Positions 1 to 15,699 of a stretch of 64,000 nucleotides of DNA are shown here, one piece after another. The translations under genes were made by a program, and so were the position numbers. This DNA is from Paramacrobiotus metropolitanus (taxonomy: Eukaryota > Tardigrada > Eutardigrada > Parachela > Macrobiotidae), in NCBI RefSeq assembly GCF_019649055.1, contig NW_026570266.1, positions 620,001 through 684,000 of the forward strand, written 5' to 3'. Every line of letters starts with the position of its first letter. The first letter of the stretch is position 1. A model generated the notes under the pieces. That model was not told where the DNA came from, did no database searches, and saw only the letters and a program-made list of their open reading frames with translations.

Positions 1-1614
1 ATCCGCGAGGGGATTATACGAGTCGATCTCTTTATTCGTTTTCTTATCGACTATACGTGCCGTAACCTTTCGTTCCTTATGGTCTTCCCCAGTGTACTTG
101 GCCGTGAAACTTCTACACTTCGGGAATCGAATCTGACCTCCTGTTCCAGCCGGTGTGGGTGGCGCACTCTTTCTACCCACTGGGAATGGGCCTTGTGGCT
201 TTGCCGGCTCAGCTGGTGTTGCTTTACCTGACGTGGCCTTCTTCGTTCGCTGCCCTTTCTTGTCAGTTTCTTTTGGGCTTATCGTCGGTGATCGTACTCT
301 TTTTCCACTTTTCGCTGTCCCGCTAGACGGTTCCGTAACCGAACTGGTCCGTCCTCGTGTTGATCCTGCAGTCGAGCTGGCCCGTGATCTTTCTGCTCGT
401 TCAGTTAACTCGGCATCAATCTTTCTCTTTGTTGCCAACAGGTCCTCATCCGTCATTTCATCGACCGGGGCGTCCCTTTCCGCTATTGGTTTGGATGGTC
501 CCGCGACGCTGGTAGTCGGCGTCTGTCTTGTTTCTGGGAACACCTTGAGATATCTAAGGATCTTTTCGACAGTCTCCGGCCACCTTCTACCTTTTATTGT
601 CGGATGGTATTGCCACATCGATGCAACTTGGATTGCGTATTCCTTGCGCTTTGCTTCAACCTGTTTCGTCTTGTCTTTCATGGCAATGTGGCATGGTTTG
701 ATAACAGCTTCCAAGCTGATTAACTTTCCATACCATGCGTGTTCGTCTTCAACTCGCATGTGGATTCTATAAAGGTCACGGCATTTCCGATTGAAGTCGC
801 GAATGGCTTCTAAGTCGGCTTCCGTCAGTTTTTCCTTTTTATCCACTATTAAATTCAGGTTCGGGTCATCATCTCTCAAATCCAACGGAAGCTTCGGTGC
901 GTATTCATGTATTGAAGGTTCACCTGGGGGCGTAAGCCGTAAACCATCTGGTCCAGTCTGATCCAAATTGGGACCCAGTGACGGTAAGATACCTCTCGGT
1001 CGCCTTCCTCCTCTGTGTGGCGAATTACGATGAGGGCGCTGCGCTCCAAGTTGCTGCGGTGTTCTCATGCGAGGCGCTCCGATGTCTGACAGTGACAAGC
1101 CTCCCGTCTCCGGAAAAGGCGGTAATATCGGAGATGACCTTTGTGACTGTACCGGAGTCGCTAGCATTCCGCCGAATCCTCCGTGTCCCGTAAATCGGCT
1201 CGGTGTAGTCTGTTGTGGTGGCGGCATCAACATTCTTGCCGGTCCCATTATCACCTGTGAGGGTCCCGCTGGTGGGGTATACGATCCCGGATACGGTTGA
1301 TAGGGAGCGCCCGTTGCTTGTCCCGGGTACTGGGTTCCGGCAGGTGAGCCGTGGTGCACCCAGTTAACCGTGTCCTGATAATTCGTCTGCTGTCCTGGAT
1401 CGTGATACACGTAATACCCTGGACTGCCGTAGTAGCCTCCTTGAACTGTTCCGGGTTCATTCTGGGCCGTTCCCACTGACGACGTCGACCCTTCACCGTA
1501 TGAGGTATCGTAACCATATTCCCCTTCCATTCTTATTGGTGTCGATGTCTTTAGTGGGTTTCCAATTATTTCCGAATCGGAATTATCGGAATTTTGCCGT
1601 CCCAATCTTTTCAT
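1..1614 (-). CDS. Extra 3' ORF after integrase, partial at window edge
   Basis: An open frame starts at the ATG at 1614 and runs without a stop off the left edge (538 codons visible). It begins about 130 bases after the stop of the RNase H/integrase ORF, the position of env in errantiviruses. The first 200 residues are rich in Gly, Pro, Tyr and Gln. A folded-looking, charged segment follows at about residues 265 to 375 (DLRDDDPNLNL, then a Trp/Tyr-containing helix-rich stretch), and then a Ser/Thr/Lys/Arg-rich tail. I see no signal peptide, membrane anchor or furin site in the visible part, so nothing supports an envelope role. The nucleotide motif AAAGGTCA continues here (about 770 and 1137). 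Function unknown; a nucleic-acid-binding accessory protein is a guess from the basic tail. Confidence 0.75.
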   Translation of the reverse strand, partial: MKRLGRQNSDNSDSEIIGNPLKTSTPIRMEGEYGYDTSYGEGSTSSVGTAQNEPGTVQGGYYGSPGYYVYHDPGQQTNYQDTVNWVHHGSPAGTQYPGQATGAPYQPYPGSYTPPAGPSQVIMGPARMLMPPPQQTTPSRFTGHGGFGGMLATPVQSQRSSPILPPFPETGGLSLSDIGAPRMRTPQQLGAQRPHRNSPHRGGRRPRGILPSLGPNLDQTGPDGLRLTPPGEPSIHEYAPKLPLDLRDDDPNLNLIVDKKEKLTEADLEAIRDFNRKCRDLYRIHMRVEDEHAWYGKLISLEAVIKPCHIAMKDKTKQVEAKRKEYAIQVASMWQYHPTIKGRRWPETVEKILRYLKVFPETRQTPTTSVAGPSKPIAERDAPVDEMTDEDLLATKRKIDAELTERAERSRASSTAGSTRGRTSSVTEPSSGTAKSGKRVRSPTISPKETDKKGQRTKKATSGKATPAEPAKPQGPFPVGRKSAPPTPAGTGGQIRFPKCRSFTAKYTGEDHKERKVTARIVDKKTNKEIDSYNPLAD

Positions 1615-1742
1615 TAACTGTGCTTACCTTCTATAAAGTGAAACAATAAAGGTTAACTTTTTGCACGGTGATGACCTTTCTTTTACACCTTCCCAACTCC
1701 TATTTTTATTGCCGAAAATTTCCTTAATCATATTTATGTGGG

Positions 1743-4574
1743 TTATTTGTTTTCGCGTCCTTTAGTTATCCGATCAAGAAGTTCTTTTTCGGCTGCATCC
1801 TCAGGTTCGCCTTTCTGTGTTAACAGTTCCGTAGGAGTTGGTTTCTTCTTCCTCTGTTTGACCTTTCGCTCATTGATTGCTTTCGCTATATCGCGGCCCA
1901 ATTGTTCAGCTTTTGATTTGACCGCCTCTATTTCCTCTTTCCGCTTTTCTATGAGGTCATTCTCATTGCCGGTAGCAGCACGTGGTTCGAAAAAATTCGG
2001 GTCACGCTCTGATATCTCAGCCTCCGTACGCTGTTTCGAAGGGTCATCCTTATCTTCGGTAGCAGTGCGTGGTTCGAAAAAGGATTGTTGCAAGTCCTTT
2101 TTGGGGGTACGCTCTGGTACTTTGGAGGTCGGTTCGTTGTCTTTTTCCAGTGACCTTTCTGCCAAATTACCAGCCTCTGCGTTCAACTTGATTGTGACTG
2201 CTGTTTCGAAATCCTTATCCTCTTTCCGCTTTCTTCCTCTTTTCTTTGTAGGTTTGTCTTCCTTTTTCATTTCAGGTAGCAGAGGTGGTTCGAAAAATTG
2301 ATTGGTACAATTTTTTGAAGCATGCTCGGTTTCTACCATTTCCTTTTCGTTTGACATTCGTTGCGGATCTTTCTCTTCGGGTAATAGTGGGTGCCACGGC
2401 TTTAACCGATCAATCGAAACCACTTTTAGATCCGCTTCCTTCTTCGGATTCTGTTCGATGACCTCCGCTTCGTTTGTTCGCGGGAAGCTAAGAATTTTCC
2501 ACACTTTATCGTATTTCGACTTGAAGTCCGACTGGTTTTCTTTCTTCCCCTGTTTCGTATCTTTTGGAAGTCGTATAAGTACCAAGTCACCCACTTTGAA
2601 ATTCGGTTCCGATTTCTTCTTATTATAAATTTCCGCATTTTTCTCGTATGCATCTTTAATATTGCATTTGGCTACTTCTTCTGCAAAGGTCAAGTTCTTT
2701 TTCATAGTCTCCACCCATTCGTCTGGAGTCCCATAATCATCGGGTATATTCGTTTTCGTAACCACATCTTCCGGCATTGTCGTTTCTCCGCCATGTAGCA
2801 TATAATATGCCGAATATCCCGTTGTAGCGTGTACGACTCTGTTCATCGCCGAAATAACATATGGGAGATACTTGTTAAACTTTCTTTCATTTCCCGCTTT
2901 CAGGTATTGTGCCAAGCCATCCGCAATTGTCTGCATCTGTCTCTCTACTTGGCCTTGACCTTCTGGATGATACGCCGTTCCAAATGTGTGTTTAATCTTA
3001 AACACATTGGTGACCTTTGCCAATACTTCAGCTGTAAAGTGTCGTCCGCGATCCGTATGTAGGATGTGCGGTGCTCCGTGTACCAATATCACGTGCTTCA
3101 CGAACACTTTAGCGAACTCTTTAGCCGTCGCCGTTTTCATTGGTACCGCAATCACGTATTTCGTCAGTTGGTCGATAAACACCGCTATGTACTTATATCC
3201 CCGTTTCTTGGTCGGTAACAAAGGCCCTTTCAAGTCAGCATATACTCGGAAGAACGGATGTCCCACTTTAATCTCTTGCAATTTTCCAGGTGGGCATTTC
3301 CTCGGTGTTTTACGGAACTGACATCCTTGACAGGCGAGTATGTAATTCTTCACATCTGTACTCATCCTATCCCAGTAATATCGGAGTCTTATTGCTGACA
3401 ATGTTTTCTCAAATCCCAAATGTCCCGCTGCTTTCTCGTCGTGCAATGCGTGGATTATCGCTCTTCGCATTGACAACGGAACGACATATGACCTTTCAAG
3501 TTTTCCATTTTTATCCTTTACTCGGTATAATATACCATTCCACAACTGGTAATGCACTTCAAACTTCGATCTTGTTTCCGCGTCTGGTAGATGTTCCAAT
3601 TCGTCTATGATCATTGCCAGATGGGGATCTTTCAACTGTTTATTCCGCAATTGCAAGTTTGAGTCATCAACCTCTTCTTCGTCACCCTGCAGGTTGACAA
3701 TGCGGACTGTCGCTGTGCTGAGTTCGTTCCAATCCTTGATGACCTTGCATCGCGGTAGCGGTTTGTACCTCTTTTTCGTCTGTTTTGGGAATTTCAGCAA
3801 CTTAATCGGACACTCATTCAACGCTTGTGTGATTTTGTCCGTTTCCCAAAGGTCATCTCCCTTCTCCGCTGCTTTATCAAGTCCGGTGACCTTTCCATTC
3901 TGCATTTTAGATTCCGCGTCAAGTCCGGTGACCTTTAAGTCACTAACGGCGGGCAACCAGCTTTTAACTCGGTTCACTTGGACTTCGTTTTCAGTTGACT
4001 CATTCGCCGTAGCTGAAGTGACCTTTAATCGTTTTTCTCGTTGTTCCACCATCTGTAGGAACAGCTGACCGATTTCGATTGCTGGTTCTTTCGTGTCAAA
4101 TTCCTTCTTGTAATCCTCGAAGTTTGGAATCTCATCAAATTCTTCTTCTTGACACGTCGGGCCTTCGATTGGCGCTCTTGATAATGCATCCGCGTTGTCG
4201 CAGTATTTTCCCGGTTTATATTCGATTTTGAACTGGTGACCTTGTAATGCCATTGCCCATCTCGTCAGACGTGGGTTCATCCCAACTTTATTCGTCTCTG
4301 ACCTCAGCAAGTTAGTCAGCGCCTGATGATCCGTCCTTACGGTAAATTCGGCATAATCGATGTACGGCTTGAATTTCCTGACAGCGAACACTACTGCCAG
4401 ACATTCCCATTCCGTTACGCCGTAATTTTTCTCGGCTCCATGCAAGACGCGGCTCGCATATGCGATTGGATGTCCATCTTGTGACAGTACTGCTCCAATT
4501 CCTTCCCTTGCTCGCGTCGCATTCAATAACGGTCGGTTTTGCTGGGTCAAACTTTGCCAGTACTGGACCTTCAC
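1743..4574 (-). CDS. pol: Pol C-terminal ORF: RNase H remainder and integrase
   Basis: The first ~90 residues continue RNase H (SQDGHPIAYASR, then TVRTDHQAL). Integrase follows: an HHCC zinc domain at about residues 375 to 420 (HDEKAAGHLGF ... CQGC), then the catalytic core with Asp in VYADLKGP, Asp in HTDRGRHF and Glu in EGQGQVERQM, so the D,D,E triad is complete. The last ~250 residues are a Lys/Glu-rich tail with three FFEP motifs (FFEPP, FFEPRTAT, FFEPRAAT). The apparent start at 4574 is GTG and the frame overlaps the RT ORF by 263 bases, so this is probably a separated part of one Pol reading frame rather than an independently initiated protein. The stop at 1743 to 1745 is TAA. Confidence 0.9.
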   Translation of the reverse strand: MKVQYWQSLTQQNRPLLNATRAREGIGAVLSQDGHPIAYASRVLHGAEKNYGVTEWECLAVVFAVRKFKPYIDYAEFTVRTDHQALTNLLRSETNKVGMNPRLTRWAMALQGHQFKIEYKPGKYCDNADALSRAPIEGPTCQEEEFDEIPNFEDYKKEFDTKEPAIEIGQLFLQMVEQREKRLKVTSATANESTENEVQVNRVKSWLPAVSDLKVTGLDAESKMQNGKVTGLDKAAEKGDDLWETDKITQALNECPIKLLKFPKQTKKRYKPLPRCKVIKDWNELSTATVRIVNLQGDEEEVDDSNLQLRNKQLKDPHLAMIIDELEHLPDAETRSKFEVHYQLWNGILYRVKDKNGKLERSYVVPLSMRRAIIHALHDEKAAGHLGFEKTLSAIRLRYYWDRMSTDVKNYILACQGCQFRKTPRKCPPGKLQEIKVGHPFFRVYADLKGPLLPTKKRGYKYIAVFIDQLTKYVIAVPMKTATAKEFAKVFVKHVILVHGAPHILHTDRGRHFTAEVLAKVTNVFKIKHTFGTAYHPEGQGQVERQMQTIADGLAQYLKAGNERKFNKYLPYVISAMNRVVHATTGYSAYYMLHGGETTMPEDVVTKTNIPDDYGTPDEWVETMKKNLTFAEEVAKCNIKDAYEKNAEIYNKKKSEPNFKVGDLVLIRLPKDTKQGKKENQSDFKSKYDKVWKILSFPRTNEAEVIEQNPKKEADLKVVSIDRLKPWHPLLPEEKDPQRMSNEKEMVETEHASKNCTNQFFEPPLLPEMKKEDKPTKKRGRKRKEDKDFETAVTIKLNAEAGNLAERSLEKDNEPTSKVPERTPKKDLQQSFFEPRTATEDKDDPSKQRTEAEISERDPNFFEPRAATGNENDLIEKRKEEIEAVKSKAEQLGRDIAKAINERKVKQRKKKPTPTELLTQKGEPEDAAEKELLDRITKGRENK

Positions 4575-6945
4575 ACAACAACTTTTTCAAGCTATTGAAC
4601 TCTTCCTCATGTACTGCTGTCCAGTCCTTTTTCACGTGTTGATCTTGTCTCAGCAACTCGTACAAGTGGCAAGTCTTCTGTGCGTATCCCATTATGAACT
4701 TGCGATAATAATTCGCCAGTCCAAGGAATGACCTTAACTGCCTTTCTGTTTGAGGCCGTTTAAATTCTGAGACCGCGGTGACCTTTTCCGGATCCATTCG
4801 AATTCCATCTTCGCTGAGTATATGACCCAGAAATCCCATTTGTCTCATTCCGAATTCGCACTTGGTTGGTTTAATCGTGAATCCCGCTTCAACCAGACTC
4901 ATTAAGACATTTCGCAGGTTCTGCATGAAAATCTCCCAAGTTTTTCCGGCGAAGATTACGTCATCGATGTAACCGAAAACGCAGCCCTTTCTTTTCGCTT
5001 TCGAGAGTACTTTATCCATACACAATTGAAATGTTGCTGGTCCGTTGCAAACTCCAAATGGCATTCTTTTAAACCGGTACATTCCATCTTGTGTTACAAA
5101 GGTCGTCTTATTGATTGACGCCGGATCCATTGGAATCTGCCAAAATCCACTTTGTAAATCCATTTTTCCGTAGTATTTGTTGCCTGCGCACGCATCGAGC
5201 AACTCATCTGGATTCGGTAGCGGGTAGTTATTCTTTCTCGTTAGCTTGTTAAGCATGATGTAATTGACGCAAAATCTTGTTCCCATTGTTCCGTCGCCGT
5301 TTTTCTTTATTGCCAGCACGACTGGGAAACTCCAGTCGGCATCGGACGGCTCAATTACATCTTGTGCCAACATTTCTTCAATATGCTTCGTTATAAACTC
5401 ACGGCCTGTCCAACTCGTTCTGGCCGGGTTACATTTAACTGGTTTCGCATCTCCCGTATCGATTACGTGAGTGACCCCTTTCACATCTCCGTATGGTTTC
5501 TTCGATGTGGGTAAGACCTTCCAGAATTCCCAGAACGCGTTATACACGTCGTTTTTCTGCTCTTGGGTAAGGTCAGGTCCCAATTTCAAGTTTTCGATTA
5601 TCTTTGTAAGTTCAGCTTTCGTTGTATCATCCACCTCCGGGTCCTCGAGTACGTTCTTTACTGTCCCGGCGTTGACCTTTACATTTTCCATATGCTCATA
5701 CGGTTCAACGTATCCCAGAAGCTGATTTTTCTTCACGATCCGGTATTTGCTACTATGATTCGCAATGACGATTTCAAAATATTTTCCTCTATGGTCCGTC
5801 ACTCCTGCCAACGGTTGTACTTCAGTTTCCACTTGTGGGACCGGTGTAAACATCAACTTGTTTTGGGCCGGTGCATATTTTCCCATCTTAACCTTTACAC
5901 GTGTGCAGTTTGACGGTTTCAATTTAATTCGCTGGTCGCTGTAGACTTTGATCACATCCTTCGACATTCTGGCTTTTTCCACTTTTAGTCTTCTGACTTT
6001 AATGTCTTTTTCTTTCTCTTCATCTACTTCGTCATCTTCATCCAAATCCAATAAGTCCTCTTGTTCCGAAAGGTCACTTACTCCTGAATCTTCCGAAGTT
6101 GTTGAGTTATCACTTGAACTCGTCCACTCCGAATCCGAGTTACTGCTCTCATATTCTTGCGCGGTAGCTTGACCTTTGTCAGCTTCTTCGAGTGGGCGCT
6201 CATCAACTCCTTCGTCTTCTGATGAAAGGTCACTTTCATTTTCCCGTGAATCGCTAAGTTTTTTCGCTTTCGAATTTTTGAGCAGGGGTTTGTCCCCTTC
6301 CTTTGCCTTTCGCCCATTTCGTGCGGCGACTCTCGGGTGACTCCTTGCTACTCGGATTCTCGCTGGTGACCTTTCTGATTGGTCGGAGTTTGACCTTTCT
6401 TCGTCCGGTTTTGACTTTTCCAGTTCATTTATGTTTTCAAGGCTCGTAAATGGCTTTTCGGTCAACTCGACCGGCGGACATTCCTCACCGTTATCGAGTG
6501 ACCTTTCCCCGTTTTTTGTCTCAGTTACAGGGTTTTGTTCATTCGATATCCTCTCAACTTCCTCTTTAAACTTCTTCCACATTTCTCTTCTGTCCGTTAA
6601 CATCTGTGCAATGTCAAAAGCCGACTTTGAGCTTTCTTCTGTTTCGTTCGAGCCTCCTTCAATTGGTTCCTCTTGTTCTGTTCCTTTGTCAGCTTCGTTT
6701 TCTTTGTCGGCTTTATCCTGTTGGACCGTTTCATAACCTTTAGGTCGTTTTGGGCCAATGAAGACACAATTTGCCATCAATTCCTCGGTGACCCACTCAT
6801 CATCGGGAATCGTTTCATACATGCACCATCTATCGCCGCCTCGTTCAGGGTATTCGACTCCATCTGGGTCTGGTGCAAAGGTCACCTTTTTCTTTTGCAT
6901 CAGTCCCGGTAAGCTTCTTTTCCGAGTTACTTGTAATTCTCTCAT
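4312..6945 (-). CDS. pol: Reverse transcriptase ORF with long acidic N-terminus
   Basis: It starts at an ATG (6945 to 6943) that overlaps the protease-ORF stop as ATGA. Residues 1 to about 420 are acidic and low complexity. The RT domain spans about residues 490 to 770: MDLQSGFWQI carries the first catalytic Asp, MPFGVCNGPATFQ is the Gypsy-type motif, and YIDDVIFAG carries the catalytic pair (YIDD, where most Gypsy RTs have YLDD). The connection and start of RNase H follow (FLGLANYYRKFI, then the first RNase H Asp in ECDAS). Just after that Asp the natural protein continues in another frame, and the last ~50 residues of this ORF are out-of-frame sequence. AAAGGTCA copies are read here as ERS and KVT, and reversed copies as SDLS. 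Confidence 0.92.
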   Translation of the reverse strand: MRELQVTRKRSLPGLMQKKKVTFAPDPDGVEYPERGGDRWCMYETIPDDEWVTEELMANCVFIGPKRPKGYETVQQDKADKENEADKGTEQEEPIEGGSNETEESSKSAFDIAQMLTDRREMWKKFKEEVERISNEQNPVTETKNGERSLDNGEECPPVELTEKPFTSLENINELEKSKPDEERSNSDQSERSPARIRVARSHPRVAARNGRKAKEGDKPLLKNSKAKKLSDSRENESDLSSEDEGVDERPLEEADKGQATAQEYESSNSDSEWTSSSDNSTTSEDSGVSDLSEQEDLLDLDEDDEVDEEKEKDIKVRRLKVEKARMSKDVIKVYSDQRIKLKPSNCTRVKVKMGKYAPAQNKLMFTPVPQVETEVQPLAGVTDHRGKYFEIVIANHSSKYRIVKKNQLLGYVEPYEHMENVKVNAGTVKNVLEDPEVDDTTKAELTKIIENLKLGPDLTQEQKNDVYNAFWEFWKVLPTSKKPYGDVKGVTHVIDTGDAKPVKCNPARTSWTGREFITKHIEEMLAQDVIEPSDADWSFPVVLAIKKNGDGTMGTRFCVNYIMLNKLTRKNNYPLPNPDELLDACAGNKYYGKMDLQSGFWQIPMDPASINKTTFVTQDGMYRFKRMPFGVCNGPATFQLCMDKVLSKAKRKGCVFGYIDDVIFAGKTWEIFMQNLRNVLMSLVEAGFTIKPTKCEFGMRQMGFLGHILSEDGIRMDPEKVTAVSEFKRPQTERQLRSFLGLANYYRKFIMGYAQKTCHLYELLRQDQHVKKDWTAVHEEEFNSLKKLLCEGPVLAKFDPAKPTVIECDASKGRNWSSTVTRWTSNRICEPRLAWSREKLRRNGMGMSGSSVRCQEIQAVHRLCRIYRKDGSSGAD
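4507..4515 (-). other. Frame break between RT ORF and RNase H/integrase ORF
   Basis: Within RNase H, three or so codons after the first catalytic Asp, the conserved protein moves from the RT frame to the frame of the next ORF, a +1 change. The sense bases here include GCG AGC A followed by GG, near an AA/GGG run. A one-base insertion (mutation or homopolymer sequencing error) is the simplest explanation. A programmed +1 shift is an alternative, because GCG-AGC-A resembles the GCG-AGU-U site used by yeast Ty3, but a programmed site inside a folded catalytic domain would be unusual. Confidence 0.75.
6942..6945 (-). promoter_or_regulatory. AUGA stop/start overlap between protease and RT ORFs
   Basis: The protease-ORF TGA (6944 to 6942) overlaps the RT-ORF ATG (6945 to 6943). 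The RT frame has a TGA only four codons upstream of this ATG, and no canonical X XXY YYZ heptamer lies in that short window. Coupled termination and reinitiation therefore fits better than -1 frameshifting. Confidence 0.6.
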
Positions 6946-9900
6946 GTTTTGACATCAAATGTGGGAATTTCTCTTTCAAATTTATCCCAGTATCTCTCAA
7001 ATTTCTCTTCGTTTCCCTCTTTTAACGCGTCGTAGTATACTTGAAGCGATTCGTAAACGGGTGTGCCAAGTCCTGCTGGGAAAATAATCGTTCTTCCTTC
7101 GCCTTTATACATGTGGTTTACGCGAAAGTCCCAGAAAAGGTCAACTCTTGCTTCTTCCCACATTTCTCCTTCTTCGTTCATCTCCTCTATCTCTCTTTCG
7201 AATCTCTTTTCGGTTGCTACCGGATCAAGAGGATCTTGGATTCCCTTTTCGACACGTTTTAACCAATGATTTAGCCATTTGCCTCTCCCGATTATAAAGC
7301 TTCCCACACATGATAGCCACGTTCGATATCTGTTCCAATGATATCGTTCGATGTGTGGTTTCCACATTTCGTTTGTCCGCATAATGCCTTTCACTTCCTT
7401 TTGAGCTTGACCTTTAAGGTCTGCTATTGCGGCATTGCATTTCGGCCATTGTGAAAGGTCATCTTGAGAGGCATTTTCGCAACATTCTGCGCATTCCCAT
7501 TGTGGTTGTATTCTGCACGGGTCTTCAAAGTAGCCGTGGTGACAACTCCTGGCCCGTTCGTCTGAAGTTAATATCCTTTCACCCGCTTGCGGTTTAACCT
7601 CTTCCTGTGCTTTAGTATCTTCCTCACTTACATTTGGGGTCACGCTTTTGTCCTCAGAGGGTATTTCGATGACCTCTGGTTCTCTTTGTGTTCGGTGACC
7701 TCTCAACTGTTCGAGCGCCTTGTGACGAATTTCACTTGTAAACATCTGTTCCTCTTCGGCTATTCGTTTTAAAACGCGTAACCTTTCACTCTTTTTATCT
7801 TTCCACACTTTGGCCGTCTTTATTCCCAGTGCCTCTGGTACTGGGATAGGCTTTGCCCACTCCATGCCTGGCACGAGCGATTGTTTCGCCGCAGCTGCTG
7901 CTTCTTTCTGTGTGGCAGCTATCTCTTCAAGTGTCGGTGACCTTTCGTCATTGATAGCAGAGTGTGGTTCGAAAAATTTCGGATTACGCTCTGGTTCATT
8001 TTCAGCTTCATTTTCAGGATTGGGCTCTGGTGCCAAGTTCTCAGCTCTTATGACCGGTGACCTTTCATCTTCCTTTCCCAGTGCCTCTGGTACTGGGATA
8101 ACTTTTTCGACATTTCCATCTTCTGTGGCTCCTTGTTCACGGTCATCTGCGATCATACTTCTCCCGTCCGGGAGAAATATGATCGCCTCATCCGGTTCTG
8201 GCGCAAGCAGTTCCTTTTTCCTTTCGTTGACCTTTTTGACGTTTGCGCTATCGCTTTTCTTTTCCGGTGCCTCTGGTACCGGGATTATCCGTTGGCTAAT
8301 CTCATTCTGCTGCGCTTTTGTCATTCCCGGTGCCTCTGGTACTGGGATGACCTTTTCTCTTCCCTTTTTTGTCGGCATTGTCCGGTTTAACGTGTTTTCG
8401 ATCTCTTGCCGAATCATTTGCAACTGCTCAACTGGTGACAATTCTTTTTGCGCCATCTTTTTCTTTATGTTTCCCGGTGCCTCTGGTACTGGGATTAGCG
8501 TTTTATTAACAGTTGGAACATTTTCCTGTTTTGCAAGTTCGGTGACCTTTCCGACTTGTACTTTGGCAACTGGTTTCGAGTCATCTTCCTTTTCTTCTTC
8601 ACCTTCATTGTCCATCAATACGAATTTCTTTTCCAAGAAGTCAAATCCCAATAACACTTGTACGTCGTCACACTTCGGTCGGACGTAGAATGAATGTTCA
8701 CTTGTCTTCTTCCTTAAGGTCACTGGTGCTACGCAGTAGTGCGTCACCAGGAATCCTGACGTTCCGCTGATTCCATTAATCTTCACCAATCTATCTGGTG
8801 GCAATGGGAGCATATGGAGTCCATTCTTCTCGCAAAACGGTTTGCTGATCAGCGACGTCTCAGCGCCGGTGTCCAACATTGCGTTGACCTTTATGTCTCC
8901 CACTTTCACTTCATGTGTGTACGCTTCGATCCTCTTGGGCAGTTTTCCATTTTGAATCTTCAGGGTATGAATCTTACATTTCACAGGAATGAGCGATACT
9001 GGTCCCGGATCCATTTCGGGAAGCGCTTGTCCTTTCGCTGGGGTACTGTGACCTTTCAGTATCTCGCTCAACTTATCAATCCTGTGTGGCACGTCAGTTC
9101 GGACATCGTAAAATTTCCGTGTCTCTTTCTTGTCTGTCAGCTTCTCAGGAGTCTTTTTACTGCTGGTGACCTTTTCGGCATTTTGCACTTGCTCGTTTGC
9201 TTTTGTGCCATCCGCGTGACCTTTAGTCACTTCATTTATTGCCTGATGAATCAATTCCTCTTTACGGTTTTCATTTCGTTTGTCTCGCAATTTCTCAATG
9301 ACTTCACTTGTTATTTTGTCAGCTCGCTTCAATTCGTCTTCTTCGTTATCTTTCGTTTCATCTGGTGACCTTTCATATGTAACCATATCATATCCCTTTT
9401 CGGTCATCCATTCAATCACCTTTGCAGACACTTCATTGTTTGTTTTCGTCGGGTCAATTTGTGAAGACATTCCGTCTGTTCGGGCTGGTGACTTGTCATT
9501 GGCATCCTTTTGTAGTGCTTGAGATAAGTCCCGTGACCTTTCAACTGCGCTACTCTGTTGCATTTGCGTTATCTCATTTGACCGTCCCTTTTGTTCATTT
9601 TGCGCTAGGTCCTGTGATCTTTCATTGTGCTTCATGACAAATCCGCCGCCTGTCAACTTTTGTATTGGGACTTTTTCTCCATAATTCGGCGGTTTATCCT
9701 GTGGCGGGGCATTACGTGAATGATTCCAGTCAGCGAGTGTCTTCTTGTATTCAGCTGGGTCAAATGCTGGGACTTGGTTCGGTGACCTTTGCGCTGGTTT
9801 CCCGGTAACCAACTCTTCTAATCGCTTTCTTTCGCATTGCGTTCGCAACTGTTGCATGTCCCAGTAATCCTCTTGTGACATTCTCGCTTTCTGCTTTGCT

Positions 9901-10190
9901 TTTGGCGTCACGGGTATCCACATCCCGTGATTCCCATTTGGTCTGTAGGCCACTTTTTGCCACCTTTCCTTCTGTTGTAACGTTACTGCATCATCAAGTG
10001 AGTCATCGGAGTTCTGTTGTGCCGGTTCGTTATTCTGTTGCTGCGCTGTTCGCAGTGTCAAGTCATTTTCTTGACCTTTTAACACGACGCTGTCGCCGCG
10101 ACCTTTCACATTCGCACTCGCTCCGTGACCTTTCGCTTGAACTTTTCCAACAGAGGGTGACCTTTCATCCTTACTGTTAACGGTGATGTT
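6942..10190 (-). CDS. pro: Protease ORF with long repeat-rich spacer
   Basis: The frame is open from just after a UAG (10193 to 10191) to a TGA at 6944 to 6942. The first in-frame ATG is about 90 codons in, so translation probably enters through the UAG. A retropepsin-like core lies near residue 410 counted from 10109: AMLDTGAETSLI holds the catalytic DTG, and LLGFDFL about 60 residues later is the second conserved strand. The spacer after it carries five copies of IPVPEAPG or IPVPEALG and one FFEPHSAI. A Cys/His cluster (HHGYFEDPC ... WECAECC) and a charged Trp-rich C-terminal domain ending before the RT ORF are of unknown family. The TGA overlaps the RT start codon. AAAGGTCA is read here in all three frames (KGHADG, ERSPDE, KVTSSK). 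Confidence 0.88.
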   Translation of the reverse strand, partial: NITVNSKDERSPSVGKVQAKGHGASANVKGRGDSVVLKGQENDLTLRTAQQQNNEPAQQNSDDSLDDAVTLQQKERWQKVAYRPNGNHGMWIPVTPKAKQKARMSQEDYWDMQQLRTQCERKRLEELVTGKPAQRSPNQVPAFDPAEYKKTLADWNHSRNAPPQDKPPNYGEKVPIQKLTGGGFVMKHNERSQDLAQNEQKGRSNEITQMQQSSAVERSRDLSQALQKDANDKSPARTDGMSSQIDPTKTNNEVSAKVIEWMTEKGYDMVTYERSPDETKDNEEDELKRADKITSEVIEKLRDKRNENRKEELIHQAINEVTKGHADGTKANEQVQNAEKVTSSKKTPEKLTDKKETRKFYDVRTDVPHRIDKLSEILKGHSTPAKGQALPEMDPGPVSLIPVKCKIHTLKIQNGKLPKRIEAYTHEVKVGDIKVNAMLDTGAETSLISKPFCEKNGLHMLPLPPDRLVKINGISGTSGFLVTHYCVAPVTLRKKTSEHSFYVRPKCDDVQVLLGFDFLEKKFVLMDNEGEEEKEDDSKPVAKVQVGKVTELAKQENVPTVNKTLIPVPEAPGNIKKKMAQKELSPVEQLQMIRQEIENTLNRTMPTKKGREKVIPVPEAPGMTKAQQNEISQRIIPVPEAPEKKSDSANVKKVNERKKELLAPEPDEAIIFLPDGRSMIADDREQGATEDGNVEKVIPVPEALGKEDERSPVIRAENLAPEPNPENEAENEPERNPKFFEPHSAINDERSPTLEEIAATQKEAAAAAKQSLVPGMEWAKPIPVPEALGIKTAKVWKDKKSERLRVLKRIAEEEQMFTSEIRHKALEQLRGHRTQREPEVIEIPSEDKSVTPNVSEEDTKAQEEVKPQAGERILTSDERARSCHHGYFEDPCRIQPQWECAECCENASQDDLSQWPKCNAAIADLKGQAQKEVKGIMRTNEMWKPHIERYHWNRYRTWLSCVGSFIIGRGKWLNHWLKRVEKGIQDPLDPVATEKRFEREIEEMNEEGEMWEEARVDLFWDFRVNHMYKGEGRTIIFPAGLGTPVYESLQVYYDALKEGNEEKFERYWDKFEREIPTFDVKT

Positions 10191-10193: not shown

Positions 10194-10991
10194 CTGAATC
10201 CATTGTTGCCTTATCAACTCCTCTTCTTCATCTTCTGAGTAATTCCAGAATTTCGGCTTTATCTCCCCGTGACAGTCACAACATGGCTCATTCGCTTTGT
10301 CGTTTTCTGCCAGGAATTTTCGGAATTTCTCATGCTGCTCATTGTTTTCTTGCGCAGTATCGTTCTGCGGTTTCTTCTGATTCAGCAGCGCCTGTTTAAT
10401 CTTTGCATTTCGTTGTGCACGTCGTTGCGCTAGCACTTCTTCGCTACAGTACGGTGACCTTTCGTTTTGCTGCACTTTTTGCAGTGTCGCGCTACCGTCA
10501 CGACAATTTCCACTCGCAGTACCATTCTGCGGTGACCTTTGGTCCCGTTGCGCGCTTCCACTCGCAGTACCATCCTGCGATGACCTTTTGTCCACTTGAA
10601 CGTTTCCACTCGCAGTACCATTCTGCGGTGACCTTTTGTCCACTTGAACATTTCCACTCGCAGTACCATTCTGCGGTGACCTTTGATTCTGTGACGGTAT
10701 CCTTATAACCGTTCCAATTTCTTTTTGCGATGACGGCATCCATATAGCCGTTTCTCTTTGCTGTGGCGGCATCCATCTAGCCGTTTCCTTTTGCGCTGAC
10801 GGCATCCATATAGCCGTTGCAGTGGTCACATTCACTGCAGTACCATTCTGCAGTGGTGACCTTTCCCTTTTATCCGGTGGTTTAGGGTCGGGGCGATCAG
10901 TAGGCTCACCGGTGCCTTTTGATCTTGCCCGTTTCCCTGAACCGGCGCCCCACCTTGTTGCGCGCCCTGCACATTGCCTTGTTGTTGTCCG
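10191..10991 (-). CDS. Repeat-rich linker ORF in -1 frame relative to Gag
   Basis: This frame opens after a TAA at 10994 to 10992, overlaps the end of Gag by about 160 bases in the -1 frame, and ends at the UAG at 10193. It has no ATG near its beginning, so entry by -1 frameshifting from Gag at GGGAAAC is the natural model. The protein is composed of short tandem repeats: three 11-residue units (TAIWMPSAQKE type) and four 16-residue units (RSPQNGTASGNVQVDK type), then a charged segment with a small Cys/His motif (CCDCHGE) and an acidic end. I do not recognise a family. It may be a spacer between Gag and protease. Each 16-residue unit carries one near-exact AAAGGTCA at DNA level. Confidence 0.7.
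   Translation of the reverse strand, partial: RTTTRQCAGRATRWGAGSGKRARSKGTGEPTDRPDPKPPDKRERSPLQNGTAVNVTTATAIWMPSAQKETARWMPPQQRETAIWMPSSQKEIGTVIRIPSQNQRSPQNGTASGNVQVDKRSPQNGTASGNVQVDKRSSQDGTASGSAQRDQRSPQNGTASGNCRDGSATLQKVQQNERSPYCSEEVLAQRRAQRNAKIKQALLNQKKPQNDTAQENNEQHEKFRKFLAENDKANEPCCDCHGEIKPKFWNYSEDEEEELIRQQWIQ
10513..10700 (-). repeat. Four 48-bp in-frame tandem repeats, each with the AGGTCA motif
   Basis: Units begin at 10513, 10561, 10609 and 10657 (exact 48-bp spacing) with ctcgcagtaccat, and each contains TGACCTTT on the plus strand. They encode the 16-residue repeat of the linker ORF. Confidence 0.9.
10735..10830 (-). repeat. Three 33-bp in-frame tandem repeats
   Basis: Units starting with ggcatccat at 10735, 10768 and 10801 encode three copies of an 11-residue repeat around the peptide TAIWMPS at the start of the linker ORF. 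Confidence 0.85.
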
Positions 10992-13900
10992 TTACCAATT
11001 GCCGGGTTAGGGTTTTGTCCGTTTCCCATGTTCTGGCCGCCACCAATATTTTGTCCGCCACCCTGTTGGTAGTTTCCTTGGCCGCCTCCGTTTCCACCGC
11101 CTTGATTGTTGCCATAGTTCCCGCGGCCATAGCCTCTGCCTCTTCCTCTGAAGCCGCCGCGGCCGAAGCCACCACGGCCGTAGCCGCCATTGTTCTGGCC
11201 ACCGCCGTTACCATTTCCGTAATTCCCGTTTCCATTCCCTTGATTTTGGAAATTTGCTTTATGTTGGTACCATTGGGTGATGAGGTCATATCCGTTTGCG
11301 ACCGCTGGGCGCCAGCCACCTATAGCTCGGAGGCGTTGCCACTCGTTAAAGGCAAACAGATTCGGGTTCTGTTCTGGTGGTGTATTGGCGAACTTGCACC
11401 CCTGTGTCTGATGGTTGCCGTACATACAGTACTGGCACATCTGCACATTGTTCGCCACCCATCCATCAATCATCTGGAACTTGAATTCGGTTCGTGATCC
11501 TTGATTTTGCTGTTGATTCCCTCTGAAGTTTCCTTGACCTTGACCTCGTCCCTGGTTCTGGAAGTTCCCCTGACCTCCATTCCAGTTTCCATTTCCGTAT
11601 CCATTTCCGCCAAAGTTTCCGTTACCCCCTCCTTGTTGTGGTAACACGACATTCATAGGGACCATATTCTGTGGTGTAGGTGGGGCTACATTCTGGGGAG
11701 CCACATTTTGGGCTACTGGGCTCACTTGAGCTGCTGCCTGTATCGCCGCCACCATCGCATATGTTATCGGTTGTCCCGTCTGACTGTCGATAAAGGTCAC
11801 CTTTTCTGTGACCTCCCTAACCGGAGTCTCCACTCGGTATTCAACCGGCTGCTGGACTGGCGCAGCTGCCATTCTAGGTTGCGGCACGTTTTCGACTTGG
11901 CCTTGCCGGATGGTCACGTATTCCTGATTGCGTTGACCTTTCGGCGCTTTATACTTTTCCTCACCCGTTGCCCAATGACGGAAGAAGTCCTTCACGTCCG
12001 TTGGCGTCTTACACTTCTGTATACGCAATGCTTTGTAGAGTTCATTGTCCACTCTACATCCTTCGATTAGGAAGCCCACTGCTTGCTTTTCCGTGATGAT
12101 CCGTTTTGCTTTGAATCGCATCATGGCCTGGTAATACTGGTCAAGCGATTCCTTTCCGAGCTCGAATTTCCTTGCGTAGGCCTCGCGTAAGCCTAGGACT
12201 TCCTCATCTCGGTCGCCATATTCATCTTTAAATTTTTCCATCCATTCAGTTATCGAGTATTCGATTCCGTCTTCTGCTGCAATGTCCTTTTCTCCTTCAA
12301 ACCAGGTTTTTGCGGGACCTTTCACTGCACTGGCTATCTCAATCATGATTTGGTCATCCGTCAACTGATAAGTCCTTTGGGTTTCTTTCACCAGTCGTGT
12401 CCACCCACTCACTGTGTCGCGGCTGCCGTCAAAGGTCATGAGGGGCGTTTTCCTGGCCATCGAGTTGAGTGCTTTTGTCAATTGTACCGCTGTATTTTCT
12501 GCTCTCTGGTCCTCGTCTTCTTCGCTACTTGCATCATCACTTTGATTTCGTTTCGCTTTTCCATAACGGGATTTCCTTGGACGCTCCTGCCGGCTGGAGG
12601 GTCTGTCCCGTCGCCCTTCATCGATGAACACATTTGTTTCAAAGTGCGGGGGGAATTGTGAAGGGTCACCTCGACTCATATGCGGGTGACTTTCCGAGGG
12701 TGGCTCTTTGTCATCTTTGACCTTTTCGCCATCTCGTTCCGTTTTCACGCTTCCTTTTCCGGTACCAGTTCGTAATGGCATATCAAAGTGGAAGCTTTTG
12801 CCCGTGCCCGTTTCATGCGCCTTGCTGTAACTGGGCGGAGGAGACTCCACTGTTGCCGTTTTAACTCCGTATTGTAGGAGTTGTTCATCTTTATGTTTGT
12901 TGGACATTTGAAGAGCTTTATTTTCATCTTCGAGGCGCTTAATCCTAAAATCGGATTGTTCTTTCTCATTCTTCAGGTTCTGGTTCTCTTGGTTGACCTT
13001 CGACATCTGCTGATGCAGTTGAAGCGTTTTGTCTTGAATGACCTTTTCAGTATCATTTTCCACTTTCCTGATGTGTTCCGCCAACTGGGTCACGTCCCTT
13101 TCCAATGTCATGTATTCCTCAGCTGCTGCTTTCAGCTGATTCTTGGTTGCAATCAACTCATCGTCTTTCGCCAGTGCTGTAGTTGTCATCTCGAGCAGTT
13201 CAGTATTCAGCTTTGTGACTTCTTGGTTCTTTTGAGCTACCTGTTGTTGCCATTCTTTGTCCTTCAGCTCCAATGCTGTGACCATTATATCCAGTCGCCG
13301 TGCTTCCTTTTGCCATTTGAGCCCCTCTTTGGTGACCTTTTGAATTTCCGCGGTGACCTTTTCATTTTCATCGTTGACCCTTGTAATCTCTTCCTTCAAC
13401 CTTTCTCCTTCTGTTGCTGTAATGTCTCTCGCTTCACGCATCGCCTTGATTGCGTCATTGCGTAGCTTCTCAGCTTCGTCCGCCCGTTCCTGATGACCTT
13501 TTGACTCGCTTTGCAGAGTGCTGATGGCTTCGTCTCGTAGCTTCAAATCGTTTCTAAGTTTGAAGGTCTCTGTTGCTAGCGTTGTCAATCGTTGTGTGAC
13601 CCCCGCAAGGTTAGCCGCATACTCGTCCCGCTTTGCCTCCGCTTCGATGACCTTTTGGCGTAACTCGTCACATTCGTCCTTCAATTCGGCTAAGTGCCGT
13701 GACCTTTCCGCTGACTCTTCCGACATGCTCTCGTTAAGGTCACTGACTGCAAGATGACCTTCCATTTCTCTGTCATCTACCATTTTCAAGTATTCGTCGG
13801 CCAGTTCCTTCTGTCTTTCGTATTTCACTTTCCAACCGTCTGCGGCACTTTGAAGGTCACCCTGTTGCTGCTCCAGGTCGAAGAGGCGGGTTTCAAGTGT

Positions 13901-14425
13901 GGTCAGTCTTTCTCGGTATTCCTGTTTCCGCTTGTCCGCCTGGCGTTCGTTAGCTTCAAGTTCATTCTCCAGTTCACTCACACGTCTCTTCAAAGTTGAC
14001 GTGGGGCTGTTCGGTGAGGGCGGTCGTACGTTGATGACCTTTCCTGTTTGTGTCCGTTCGATTAGGTGCTCCGGTATATCTTTGAAAGGTGTTATCCCTT
14101 CAGCGCGGTCAGCCTCCTTCATCGCGGTGTTGAAGGACATGTTCATCGTCGTTTCATCATCCGTGAAATACGATTCGTTCGATTCATCTGAGACCATCGG
14201 AGTTGCCCAAAGGTCATCCTCTGCTGCTTTGTCGTTCAGTGAAAGGTCACTCAATCCCAGTTCAGCCAATTCCTCTTCGGTGACCTTTGTCTTTTCCAAT
14301 TCCGATTGAGTCAGGTTCACATTTTTATCCTGCTCCTTTGTTCGGCTAGTGGTAGCATCCAACTGTGATGCTCCAGCTAGTTCCTCTCTTCTTTCTGTGG
14401 GTTTATCCTCCCCGGTGACCTTTAT
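10832..14425 (-). CDS. gag: Gag: long coiled coil, Retrotrans_gag domain, zinc knuckle, RGG box
   Basis: The frame is open from just after the UAG at 14428 to a TGA at 10834. The first in-frame ATG is about 76 codons in, so translation probably continues from the small upstream ORF. Counting from 14362, residues of about 100 to 500 form an extended heptad-rich coiled coil. A Retrotrans_gag-like helical domain lies at about 645 to 800 (VSGWTRLVKETQR, then AKTWFEGEKD). A CX2CX4HX4C zinc knuckle (CQYCMYGNHQTQGC) is at about 975 to 990, and Gly/Asn/Arg-rich RGG sequence (GRGGFGRGGFRGRG) at about 1045 to 1100. Together these suit a self-assembling, RNA-binding capsid/nucleocapsid precursor. The coiled coil makes it about twice as long as usual Gypsy Gag proteins. 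The end overlaps the linker ORF in the -1 frame. Confidence 0.9.
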   Translation of the reverse strand: MKVTGEDKPTERREELAGASQLDATTSRTKEQDKNVNLTQSELEKTKVTEEELAELGLSDLSLNDKAAEDDLWATPMVSDESNESYFTDDETTMNMSFNTAMKEADRAEGITPFKDIPEHLIERTQTGKVINVRPPSPNSPTSTLKRRVSELENELEANERQADKRKQEYRERLTTLETRLFDLEQQQGDLQSAADGWKVKYERQKELADEYLKMVDDREMEGHLAVSDLNESMSEESAERSRHLAELKDECDELRQKVIEAEAKRDEYAANLAGVTQRLTTLATETFKLRNDLKLRDEAISTLQSESKGHQERADEAEKLRNDAIKAMREARDITATEGERLKEEITRVNDENEKVTAEIQKVTKEGLKWQKEARRLDIMVTALELKDKEWQQQVAQKNQEVTKLNTELLEMTTTALAKDDELIATKNQLKAAAEEYMTLERDVTQLAEHIRKVENDTEKVIQDKTLQLHQQMSKVNQENQNLKNEKEQSDFRIKRLEDENKALQMSNKHKDEQLLQYGVKTATVESPPPSYSKAHETGTGKSFHFDMPLRTGTGKGSVKTERDGEKVKDDKEPPSESHPHMSRGDPSQFPPHFETNVFIDEGRRDRPSSRQERPRKSRYGKAKRNQSDDASSEEDEDQRAENTAVQLTKALNSMARKTPLMTFDGSRDTVSGWTRLVKETQRTYQLTDDQIMIEIASAVKGPAKTWFEGEKDIAAEDGIEYSITEWMEKFKDEYGDRDEEVLGLREAYARKFELGKESLDQYYQAMMRFKAKRIITEKQAVGFLIEGCRVDNELYKALRIQKCKTPTDVKDFFRHWATGEEKYKAPKGQRNQEYVTIRQGQVENVPQPRMAAAPVQQPVEYRVETPVREVTEKVTFIDSQTGQPITYAMVAAIQAAAQVSPVAQNVAPQNVAPPTPQNMVPMNVVLPQQGGGNGNFGGNGYGNGNWNGGQGNFQNQGRGQGQGNFRGNQQQNQGSRTEFKFQMIDGWVANNVQMCQYCMYGNHQTQGCKFANTPPEQNPNLFAFNEWQRLRAIGGWRPAVANGYDLITQWYQHKANFQNQGNGNGNYGNGNGGGQNNGGYGRGGFGRGGFRGRGRGYGRGNYGNNQGGGNGGGQGNYQQGGGQNIGGGQNMGNGQNPNPAIGNGQQQGNVQGAQQGGAPVQGNGQDQKAPVSLLIAPTLNHRIKGKGHHCRMVLQ
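10931..10937 (-). promoter_or_regulatory. Candidate -1 ribosomal frameshift site G GGA AAC
   Basis: Read in the Gag frame (CAG GGA AAC) the heptamer is G GGA AAC, a canonical X XXY YYZ slippery sequence used for example at the gag-pro junction of simian type D retroviruses. It lies inside the overlap where the -1 frame is open (10991 downward), about 100 bases before the Gag stop at 10834. A downstream stem-loop or pseudoknot was not folded here. Confidence 0.65.
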
Positions 14426-14428
14426 CTA
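14426..14428 (-). promoter_or_regulatory. In-frame UAG between 5' ORF and Gag
   Basis: The small 5' ORF ends ATG AAC TAG, and the long Gag frame continues in the same frame with no ATG for about 76 codons. Readthrough or a recent nonsense change would explain this. The AAAGGTCAC motif begins three bases after the stop. Confidence 0.6.
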
Positions 14429-14716
14429 GTTCATCGGATTGCCTCCCGCTGCAGATGCAGGGGTTTCCTTTCCGTCACCGCTGGAGCTCTCTTCGTTCTG
14501 TATTGCTCCGAGCGCCACTTGGTATGTGTTATCACTGCCTTTGCTGTCTTTTCTTGCAAAGGTCACAGCCGCTCGGGTCTGTCTGTCATGTCCGACTGGA
14601 CGCGCGAGCGACTTATATTCCTTCTTATAAGGATCAACTGTGCCTTGTTGTGATCCTCGGGAGCTCCTGCTTCCCTGACTGCTGGTAGATGTCGGTTCTT
14701 CTTTGTCTTTGTCCAT
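14426..14716 (-). CDS. Small 5' ORF, in frame with Gag
   Basis: The first ATG of the retroelement transcript in this frame is at 14716 (MDKDKEEPTST). It gives 96 residues, rich in Ser, Gly, Lys and Gln, with no recognised domain, ending in UAG. An in-frame TAA lies upstream of 14761, so 14716 is the most likely initiation codon for the whole Gag region. It probably forms the disordered N-terminus of Gag if the UAG is read through, or a short separate peptide if not. Confidence 0.6.
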   Translation of the reverse strand: MDKDKEEPTSTSSQGSRSSRGSQQGTVDPYKKEYKSLARPVGHDRQTRAAVTFARKDSKGSDNTYQVALGAIQNEESSSGDGKETPASAAGGNPMN

Positions 14717-14791
14717 GTTGATCGGATAACTTGGACGCTCCTGCCAATTGTTCTCACGCAAACGTTATTATATGGTTCATTCAATTTTCCT

Positions 14792-15340
14792 AAAGGTCAC
14801 TCTGTACCTCCGAAATTTTTCTAAGTCCTTATTAAAGGTCACTTCTCGACTGAAAAATTTCGACTAAGTCCCGTGTAAAGGTCACTTTTTCGATAAAAAG
14901 TTCGAGAGATTTGCCCTAAAAGGTCACTTTCGGACAAAACTTCGAAACCGTTTTTACAGTTTGAAACACGTTAGCAAATGAAATCCTACAGCTGCTGATA
15001 TCGCTGTGTCACTATTCACTTCAATTTCACTTCGATAAAGGTCACCTTTCGTCAGTTTCAGATCACAAAGGTCACTTAAATAAGTCAATTAGGACAATTC
15101 CAACTTTTCAGTAAAGGTCACTTTTCAGGTCAAAAGTCCTGTTCTGATCTCAAAGGTCACTTTCCCTCTCAGTTCAACTCAAAAGGTTGCTTTCCGACTC
15201 AATTTCTGTTAAAAAGGTCACTTTCCCGCTCAATTCAAGTTAAAGGTCACTTTTAAGCTCAATTCGATCAAAGGTCACTTTTCCTTCGTCTCAACTCAAA
15301 AGGTCACTTCTCAACTCAATTCAAGTCTAAAGGTCACTTT
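14792..15340. repeat. Leader array of AAAGGTCA sites
   Basis: On the plus strand, AAAGGTCA starts at 14792, 14834, 14877, 14919, 15037, 15067, 15113, 15152, 15213, 15242, 15270, 15299 and 15329, with a degenerate copy at 15182. Spacing is 42 to 43 bases for the first four and mostly 28 to 31 in the second block, where the intervening sequence (ctcaattcaagt-like) also repeats. AAAGGTCA is the published NBRE, the monomer site of NR4A nuclear receptors (DHR38 in insects), and contains the general AGGTCA half-site. The array sits between the promoter-like block and the first ORF. Confidence 0.9.
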
Positions 15341-15429
15341 CCCGCTCAGTTATCTCATCTTAAATCAAGTTTCCCATTACGACTCGAGTTCAACGGAAAA
15401 TCCCCATTCGGGTTGTTTACTTCGTTCTG

Positions 15430-15640: not shown

Positions 15641-15699
15641 CGTACTTAATAACGGTTTTTCTACCTGTTAACCGTCCGTTCCACGGGAAAGTGATCCAG

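What the first reader, a model, noticed from the sequence alone, without database searches (positions are those of the whole stretch)
1..15340. Retroelement saturated with the NR4A-type site AAAGGTCA in all reading frames
By eye I count about 60 exact AAAGGTCA/TGACCTTT octamers in the ORF region and 13 in the leader, against about five in the other 48 kb and less than one expected by chance in 15 kb. In ORFs the same bases are read as KVT (3889), ERS (6365) and KGH (9216), and reversed copies as SDLS (6225) or VTF, so selection or spread acts on nucleic acid, not protein. AAAGGTCA is the known NBRE of NR4A receptors (DHR38/NHR-6 in ecdysozoans). The element may recruit a host nuclear receptor along its whole length, or use the word as an RNA or DNA mark of its own. 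I know of no described retroelement with this property.
Basis: partly seen in the sequence, partly recalled or inferred. Interest (0 to 1): 0.93.

Follow-up and report, generated by a model that had tools for sequence, protein, structure and literature searches.

The report
Retroelement saturated with one nuclear-receptor word
A 25-kb jumping element in what matches a water-bear genome spells one exact DNA word 99 times, using most of the places its proteins allow, and an unrelated virus-like element in the same genome is enriched for the same word, so both likely recruit one DNA-binding protein of the animal, possibly the NR4A receptor, that would help keep them active.

Summary
The window holds two thirds of a 24.8-kb Ty3/gypsy-type LTR element (identical 354-bp LTRs, 4-bp target duplication, gag-PR-RT-RNaseH-INT plus extra ORFs) in a genome matching the tardigrade Paramacrobiotus metropolitanus. 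AAAGGTCA occurs 99 times in 24.46 kb (1.3 expected), 5 times in 47.4 kb beside it. It fills 60 of 85 sense and 13 of 15 antisense places that the proteins permit synonymously (400 permuted words: 366 of 5164, 49 of 2542). Copies keep it far more than other 8-mers; the next base is never G (0 of 99). New here: a relative with 39% gag identity and an unrelated Polinton carry the same word, neither with G next. Saturation on both strands and presence in a DNA transposon favour reading of double-stranded DNA, probably by a host factor. The word is the NR4A monomer site and the host has an NR4A DNA-binding domain, so NR4A is the leading candidate; very sharp specificity and a site-free LTR count against simple promoter use. 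An element-encoded, VANC-like reader is the main rival. No binding, expression or silencing data could be obtained.

The parts
16216..16569 (-). 5' LTR, 354 bp, without any AAAGGTCA
   Evidence: 100% identical to C46:611756-612109, the 3' LTR; flanks give target duplication ACAG; 0 motifs in 10,311 nt of LTR of 29 other copies
16204..16215 (-). likely primer binding site TGGTAGCAGAGC directly after the LTR
   Evidence: sequence; likeness to initiator tRNA-Met is recalled, not tested
15341..16215 (-). motif-free 5' stretch between LTR and leader array
   Evidence: no motif here; 0 in 25,313 nt over 29 other copies
14792..15336 (-). leader array of 13 TGACCTTT, all in one orientation, partly a 29-30-bp tandem array
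   Evidence: 11 of the 13 sites could be scored and are kept in a mean 93% of copies against 45% for other 8-mers; the two dropped for gaps are exact in 10 and 1 of 29
10832..14425 (-). gag-like ORF (Gly/Asn-rich tail), 16 motifs
   Evidence: position and tail, motifs; no Pfam hit over cut-off
10194..10991 (-). ORF B, repeats RSPQNGTASGN built around the motif, 6 motifs (one shared with the gag overlap)
   Evidence: 48-bp tandem repeat
6945..10190 (-). protease ORF, 18 motifs
   Evidence: Asp_protease_2 E 8.7e-08; motifs
4315..6954 (-). reverse transcriptase ORF, 9 motifs
   Evidence: RVT_1 E 6.4e-26; motifs
1746..4586 (-). RNase H and integrase ORF, 9 motifs
   Evidence: RT_RNaseH E 2.4e-27, Integrase_H2C2, rve E 5.1e-12; motifs
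1..1614 (-). N-terminal 538 codons of ORF F (about 1666 aa, continues in L039 4617-8000); C-terminus weakly like linker histone
   Evidence: Linker_histone 18.9 bits, cut-off 22.4

Best explanation
This 24.8-kb Ty3/gypsy-type element carries the exact word AAAGGTCA at 73 of the 100 places where its proteins allow it and 26 more times outside its long ORFs, and the word is likely a docking site on double-stranded DNA for a host-encoded protein, most probably the NR4A nuclear receptor, which would help keep the long element open and transcribed. Shown here: the count, the saturation on both strands and in every frame the code permits, the conservation across copies, the next base never G, the absence from LTR and near-absence from flanks, and the same word, again never followed by G, in a divergent relative and in an unrelated Polinton.
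For: Count 99 against 1.3 expected. Saturation 60 of 85 and 13 of 15 possible sites against 366 of 5164 and 49 of 2542 for 400 permuted words. Copies: 8-mer kept in a mean 93% (leader, 11 of 13 sites scorable) and 75% (11 sites from 14565 to 13340) of up to 29 copies against 45% and 25% for other 8-mers; in RT/INT pieces of three copies 16 of 22, 17 of 19 and 16 of 18 motifs kept against 0.30, 0.32 and 0.46 of other 8-mers, fourfold sites also higher. Next base G: 0 of 99, 2 of 602 in loci L010-L038, 0 of 14 in L066 and L067, 0 of 40 in five Polinton copies. Boundaries: 6 motifs in 42,213 nt of upstream flanks of 29 copies, 0 in their LTRs. Divergent relative L067: 12 motifs in 2 kb, 6 of 6 possible gag sites used. 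Polinton: 14 motifs in the 19.0 kb fetched, all in the 11 kb of L064 and L007, 8 of 22 possible coding sites against 1 of 29 in ORFs of at least 100 aa in the rest of the window. NBRE = AAAGGTCA, monomer binding (passages of PMC12539977, PMC4777543, PMC6912296). Host NR4A: best PDB matches NR4A1 and NGFI-B, E 2.1e-39, extension RTDSLKGRRGRLPTKPK present.
Against: No binding or expression data. All 24 single-substitution variants together are only 52 against 26.6 expected, a sharper cut-off than I would expect for a nuclear receptor. The LTR and the next 875 bp have no site. Sites in the leader, just below it and in the 3' UTR are almost all in one orientation (20 of 21), as is the Polinton intron array, which could hint at an RNA role; tandem duplication may explain part of it, and the five other sites between ORFs (window 1679 and four at L039 4257-4514) are in the other orientation. 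Three other C4 receptors that look like FTZ-F1 and ERR (labels recalled) share the AGGTCA core. The relative L066 (51% gag identity) has only 2 motifs in 2 kb. The sites are not equally kept: 15336, 15220, 14565, 13501 and 13361 are exact in only 10, 1, 10, 11 and 11 of 29 copies.
Confidence: 0.4

Rival explanations
1. VANC-like self-recognition: a protein of the element itself, for example ORF F with its possible tandem winged helices, would bind the word along all copies and remove silencing; the Polinton and a few host genes would then be hitch-hikers or targets.
For: Linker-histone-like match at the C-terminus of ORF F (18.9 bits, 21.4 bits for the shorter piece, both under the 22.4 cut-off; 2 of 14 homologues match); helix-helix-helix-strand-strand order in low-confidence models; VANC21 binds a 9-bp motif accumulated in its own element (PMC5735166, Results part 1 and section 9 read); the very sharp specificity would fit a co-evolved reader.
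Against: Same word, never followed by G, in an unrelated Polinton whose ORFs match the element's ORFs only in the integrase core (blastp) and in a relative with 39% gag identity, whereas VANC motifs differ between related families; both AlphaFold models are poor (mean pLDDT 35.5 and 41.9).
Confidence: 0.25
2. Another host DNA-binding protein, for example a zinc-finger protein, an ERR or FTZ-F1 receptor, or a chromatin or insulator protein, is the reader; the likeness to the NR4A site is coincidental or secondary.
For: Nearly all-or-none 9-bp specificity AAAGGTCAH; several C4 receptors in the genome (63 zf-C4 matches, exons counted apart; labels other than NR4A recalled); host-like loci with paired words (L004, L068, L069, L070).
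Against: AAAGGTCA is the exact published NR4A monomer site, and the 5' AA is what distinguishes it from other half-site receptors (recalled).
Confidence: 0.22
3. RNA-level signal: the word or its complement in the element RNA binds an RNA-binding protein, pairs leader with ORFs, or acts in splicing.
For: Leader, the site below it and 3' UTR: 20 of 21 TGACCTTT in the sense strand; Polinton array inside a short intron in five copies; complementarity of leader and ORF words.
Against: Both orientations are similarly saturated in ORFs (60 of 85 and 13 of 15); single-base variants, those that would still pair by G-U among them, are far below the exact word (0-6 each against 99); a DNA transposon shares it.
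Confidence: 0.08
4. No function: the word spread by repeat expansion or copying errors.
For: Part of the leader and ORF B are tandem arrays.
Against: Most sites sit in unrelated contexts, in all frames and both strands, and are conserved in diverged copies while flanks change.
Confidence: 0.02

Closest known systems
VANDAL21/VANC21 sequence-specific anti-silencing (Arabidopsis)
   Same: Many copies of one short motif within one transposon family, partly in tandem arrays; single-base changes matter; gain and loss of sites between copies
NR4A response element NBRE (AAAGGTCA)
   Same: Identical 8-base word, read by a monomer (passages)
   Different: Known to me as single or few sites in promoters and enhancers, not as about 100 sites through coding sequence; no binding shown here
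Burro giant Gypsy-like elements of planarians
   Same: LTR elements with an internal region of up to 25 kb and extra domains (passages of PMC6431247)
   Different: The passages I saw mention tandem repeats but no dispersed word; the MATH, midasin and env likenesses named there were not found here by Pfam
Polinton/Maverick elements
   Same: The second carrier in this genome: DNA_pol_B_2, rve integrase, adenovirus-type protease, A32-like ATPase
   Different: A DNA transposon; lower motif density (14 in the 19.0 kb fetched)
DNA uptake sequences of Neisseria and Haemophilus (recalled)
   Same: Exact short words dispersed through coding sequence as a mark read on DNA
   Different: Bacterial transformation; no such process is suggested here

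Membership tests
Ty3/gypsy LTR retrotransposon | Two LTRs, target-site duplication, primer binding site | tested here: met
   354-bp LTRs 100% identical, ACAG duplication, TGG-start site after the LTR
Ty3/gypsy LTR retrotransposon | Order gag-PR-RT-RNaseH-INT | tested here: met
   Pfam hits for PR, RT, RNase H and INT in this order over three ORFs; gag by position only
Endogenous retrovirus / errantivirus | env gene | tested here: inconclusive
   No Pfam family over its cut-off in ORFs F-I; no structure of adequate quality
VANC-type anti-silencing system | Motif accumulated within one TE family | tested here: met
   but also in an unrelated Polinton
VANC-type anti-silencing system | Motif and reader in non-coding regions | tested here: not met
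   73 of 99 motifs in long ORFs
VANC-type anti-silencing system | Reader encoded by the element, loss of silencing marks | not testable with these tools
   weak winged-helix hint only
NR4A-bound sites (NBRE) | Exact AAAGGTCA | tested here: met
   99 exact copies; word as printed in passages
NR4A-bound sites (NBRE) | Host encodes NR4A with its C-terminal extension | tested here: met
   L056
NR4A-bound sites (NBRE) | Binding in vitro or in chromatin | not testable with these tools
   needs EMSA or CUT&RUN
Polinton (second carrier) | DNA polymerase B, rve integrase, adenain-type protease, packaging ATPase | tested here: met
   ATPase 22.2 bits, just under its cut-off 22.8; terminal repeats not found

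The most novel reading that the evidence does not exclude
A guild of unrelated mobile elements in one animal genome, a giant LTR retroelement and a Polinton, has converged on a single 9-base host password, AAAGGTCAH, written by the retroelement into nearly every position its proteins allow, so that a host nuclear receptor coats the element from leader to 3' end and shields it from silencing: a whole-body, coding-sequence-wide licence that no transposon known to me has.
Probability: 0.35. Interest if true: 0.95.

Novelty: new variant of a known kind. Interest (0 to 1): 0.86.

Why it matters
It shows a retroelement whose protein-coding sequence carries a DNA word at close to the maximum density its proteins permit, with the same word in an unrelated DNA transposon. 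If a host receptor reads it, it would be an animal counterpart, built on a host factor, of the plant VANC anti-silencing systems, and would offer a natural system with about 100 sites per element for asking how many sites keep a locus open. It also gives a sharp experimental handle: one word and one predicted protein in a tardigrade.

Tried and rejected
Protein-coding explanation: rejected, since every permitted frame and both strands are used and synonymous shuffles fail. Chance by composition: rejected. Repeat spread alone: rejected by contexts and conservation. TATA-linked host motif: TATAAAGGTCAC is 289 against 19,414 AAAGGTCAC, no excess over 1 in 64. Helical or regular spacing: none seen (gap CV 0.88 and 1.25, phase at 10.5 bp 0.15 and 0.2). 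Self-targeted insertion near the word: upstream flanks of 29 copies hold 6 motifs in 42,213 nt. Structure of ORF F: two models, both too poor for a fold search, so none was run. Rfam and tRNA scans of the window were empty; the RT protein had no match in the phages collection. One search gave the saturation test for copies too (RT/INT pieces of three copies 38 of 57 and 13 of 17; gag starts of 29 copies 169 of 187 and 55 of 58; 300 permuted words 7-8% and about 2%, single permuted words up to 0.55 and 1.0 there), but its row for the window's own ORFs had three small ORFs trimmed out of frame and is replaced (62 of 87, 13 of 15) counted ORF overlaps twice. In one search the last stretch (F_env, 137-1612) was out of frame and is not used.

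Full report
WHAT IS THERE. The octamer count is exact: 74 in window 1-15340, 5 in the remaining 48.66 kb. The window is G000:C46:620001-684000 of a 169.8-Mb genome. Relatives of the RT and ORF F proteins are named Paramacrobiotus metropolitanus, and the lengths of their contigs equal contigs of G000 (4484719, 937287, 974462, 1283027, 1881097), so the species is inferred to be this tardigrade. Fetching the left neighbour gave the 3' LTR, 100% identical to window 16216-16569. The element runs C46:611756-636569, 24.8 kb, with ACAG at both ends and a TGG-starting site after the 5' LTR. Pfam gives protease, RT, RNase H and integrase in Ty3/gypsy order; downstream lie ORF F (about 1666 aa), G, H and I without a Pfam family over its cut-off. 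Of 386 first-look candidates for the LTR-leader stretch 40 were scored; they gave 44 matches, the window itself at 100% and the others 77-92% identical.

IS IT MORE THAN CHANCE. In 24,460 nt of the element the word occurs 99 times, 1.3 expected; the 24 one-base variants total 52, 26.6 expected; the next base is C 57, T 26, A 16, G 0, although G follows GTCA in 40 of 149 cases outside AAGGTCA in the window part of the element. The real unit is therefore AAAGGTCAH. Genome-wide, AAAGGTCAC occurs 19,414 times against 3,461 for the word read backwards, AAAGGTCAT 10,618 against 3,478, AAAGGTCAG only 4,042 against 2,427 (part of it a tandem array of about 91 bp). AAAGGTCAA was not counted.

SATURATION. 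I asked at how many codon-frame positions the encoded protein would permit the word by synonymous codons, and how many have it. With overlaps trimmed and frames kept: AAAGGTCA 60 of 85, TGACCTTT 13 of 15; 400 permuted words of the same letters 366 of 5164 and, reversed, 49 of 2542; the best permuted words with at least 10 possible sites reach 4 of 10. A site that is present is by definition possible, so the ratio is biased upward, equally for the controls. The two orientations are similarly filled, which argues that the excess of the sense form in ORFs is a coding constraint. Peptides that spell the word recur (ERS 17, KGH 6, KGQ 6).

CONSERVATION. Over 30 aligned copies (window copy as reference, 29 others), leader sites are kept in 93% on average against 45% of other 8-mers, sites from 14565 to 13340 in 75% against 25% (11 sites each). 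Two of the 13 leader sites, 15336 and 15220, were dropped from that mean because most copies have a gap there; they are exact in 10 and 1 of 29, and 14565, 13501 and 13361 in 10, 11 and 11. Eighteen alignment sites occur in other copies and not in this one; six single ones correspond to the six motifs in upstream flanks, and a few of the other twelve may be alignment shifts. Counts per copy stay within 9-15 (leader) and 6-12 (1.5 kb below it). In RT/INT pieces of three copies 16 of 22, 17 of 19 and 16 of 18 sites are kept against 0.30, 0.32, 0.46 of other 8-mers; fourfold sites inside motifs match in 23 of 26, 20 of 23 and 18 of 18 against 0.76, 0.81, 0.90 outside. The motif stops at the element: 6 in 42,213 nt upstream of 29 copies, 0 in 10,311 nt of LTR and 0 in 25,313 nt between LTR and array.

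BEYOND THE FAMILY. A paired pattern brought eight loci; none matched the element's DNA or proteins. L001, L002, L003 (same place as L002), L005, L006 and L007 align with each other and the two tested, L005 and L007, encode a DNA_pol_B_2 polymerase. One locus extended on both sides has an rve integrase, an adenovirus-type protease and an A32-like ATPase, so I call it a Polinton; no terminal repeats were found. In the five copies its polymerase gene has what looks like a short intron (gtgag...tacag) with several TGACCTTT. L064 and L007 together (11 kb) have 14 motifs; the next 8 kb (L065), whose status as element or flank I did not settle, has none. It uses 8 of 22 possible coding sites; 62 ORFs of at least 100 aa in the rest of the window, not all of them genes, use 1 of 29. 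None of its 14 sites, and none of 26 in four further copies, has G next. Of nine further stretches fetched on C1 four are relatives of the element: L071 and L072 close, L066 (gag 51% aa identity, only 2 motifs, no possible site in its gag piece) and L067 (39%, 12 motifs in 2 kb, 6 of 6 possible gag sites). L068-L070 are host-like DNA with pairs or triplets of the word; L073 and L074 remain unassigned. From the excess of nonamers I estimate some hundreds of element equivalents; this is inference.

HOW IT MAY WORK. Orientation-blind saturation in ORFs, intolerance of single mismatches including those that would still pair by G-U, and presence in a DNA transposon argue for recognition of double-stranded DNA. 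One unchanged specificity in two unrelated classes and in a diverged relative argues for a host reader. AAAGGTCA is the NBRE (passages in PMC12539977, PMC4777543, PMC6912296). The genome encodes an NR4A DNA-binding domain, best PDB matches NR4A1 and NGFI-B, and the extension that in NR4A contacts the 5' AA (recalled) is there. Against it stand the near all-or-none specificity and the site-free LTR. Sites inside the element but not in the LTR make a body-wide chromatin role the likeliest benefit; this step is inferred from the plan of the element and from VANC systems, where binding leads to loss of silencing marks over whole elements (PMC5735166, Results part 1 and section 9; PMC10398659, passages).

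AGAINST MY READING. Sites in the leader, just below it and in the 3' UTR are one-sided (20 of 21 TGACCTTT), the Polinton intron too, and host-like loci L004, L068 and L069 seem to have it in the sense strand of the neighbouring ORF (my reading); the five other sites between ORFs are the other way round. An RNA-linked or oriented role is not excluded. ORF F could be a DNA-binding protein: Linker_histone 18.9-21.4 bits against a cut-off of 22.4, 2 of 14 homologues; models at mean pLDDT 35.5 and 41.9 are not evidence.

IN PRINT. Searches, seen as listings: 'NBRE' with 'retrotransposon', 'AAAGGTCA' with 'transposable element', NR4A with LTR terms, tardigrade retrotransposons, P. metropolitanus genome, anti-silencing motif terms, giant retrotransposon. 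None of the listed titles and abstract starts describes such an element. Passages of a tardigrade transposon curation paper (PMC11071193) name Gypsy and Maverick elements in two other tardigrades, and a term count there finds no mention of Paramacrobiotus. Most subscription papers and bioRxiv preprints are not held.

Noticed in passing
L001, L002, L005, L006, L007 (L003 is the same place as L002); L064: Polinton polymerase gene with what looks like a short intron rich in TGACCTTT repeats; copies differ in number of repeats.
   Followed up: partly
L039 4617-8000 with window 1-1614: ORF F of about 1666 aa ends in two stretches that may be winged helices; weak linker-histone match under the cut-off.
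   Followed up: partly
L068 928-1080, L069 937-961, L070 984-1010, L004 1501-1524: Host-like loci with two to four copies of the word within 170 bp near or in ORFs (L069 tetraspan-like and L004 kinase-like by eye, labels recalled); possible host targets of the same reader.
   Followed up: partly
G000:C1:2537724-2538368: Eight AAAGGTCAG at steps of 90-91 bp, a tandem array with the very ninth base that the elements avoid (place list).
   Followed up: no
window 22387-22605: 220-bp stretch 98.6% identical to C1:331121-331340 (L068 121-340), a dispersed repeat in host DNA.
   Followed up: no
window 27789-33399: Two minus-strand ORFs with immunoglobulin-domain matches below the cut-off, perhaps exons of one gene.
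   Followed up: no
window 15341-16569: LTR and the following 875 bp hold no motif in this copy or in 29 others (0 in 35,624 nt), possibly avoidance.
   Followed up: partly
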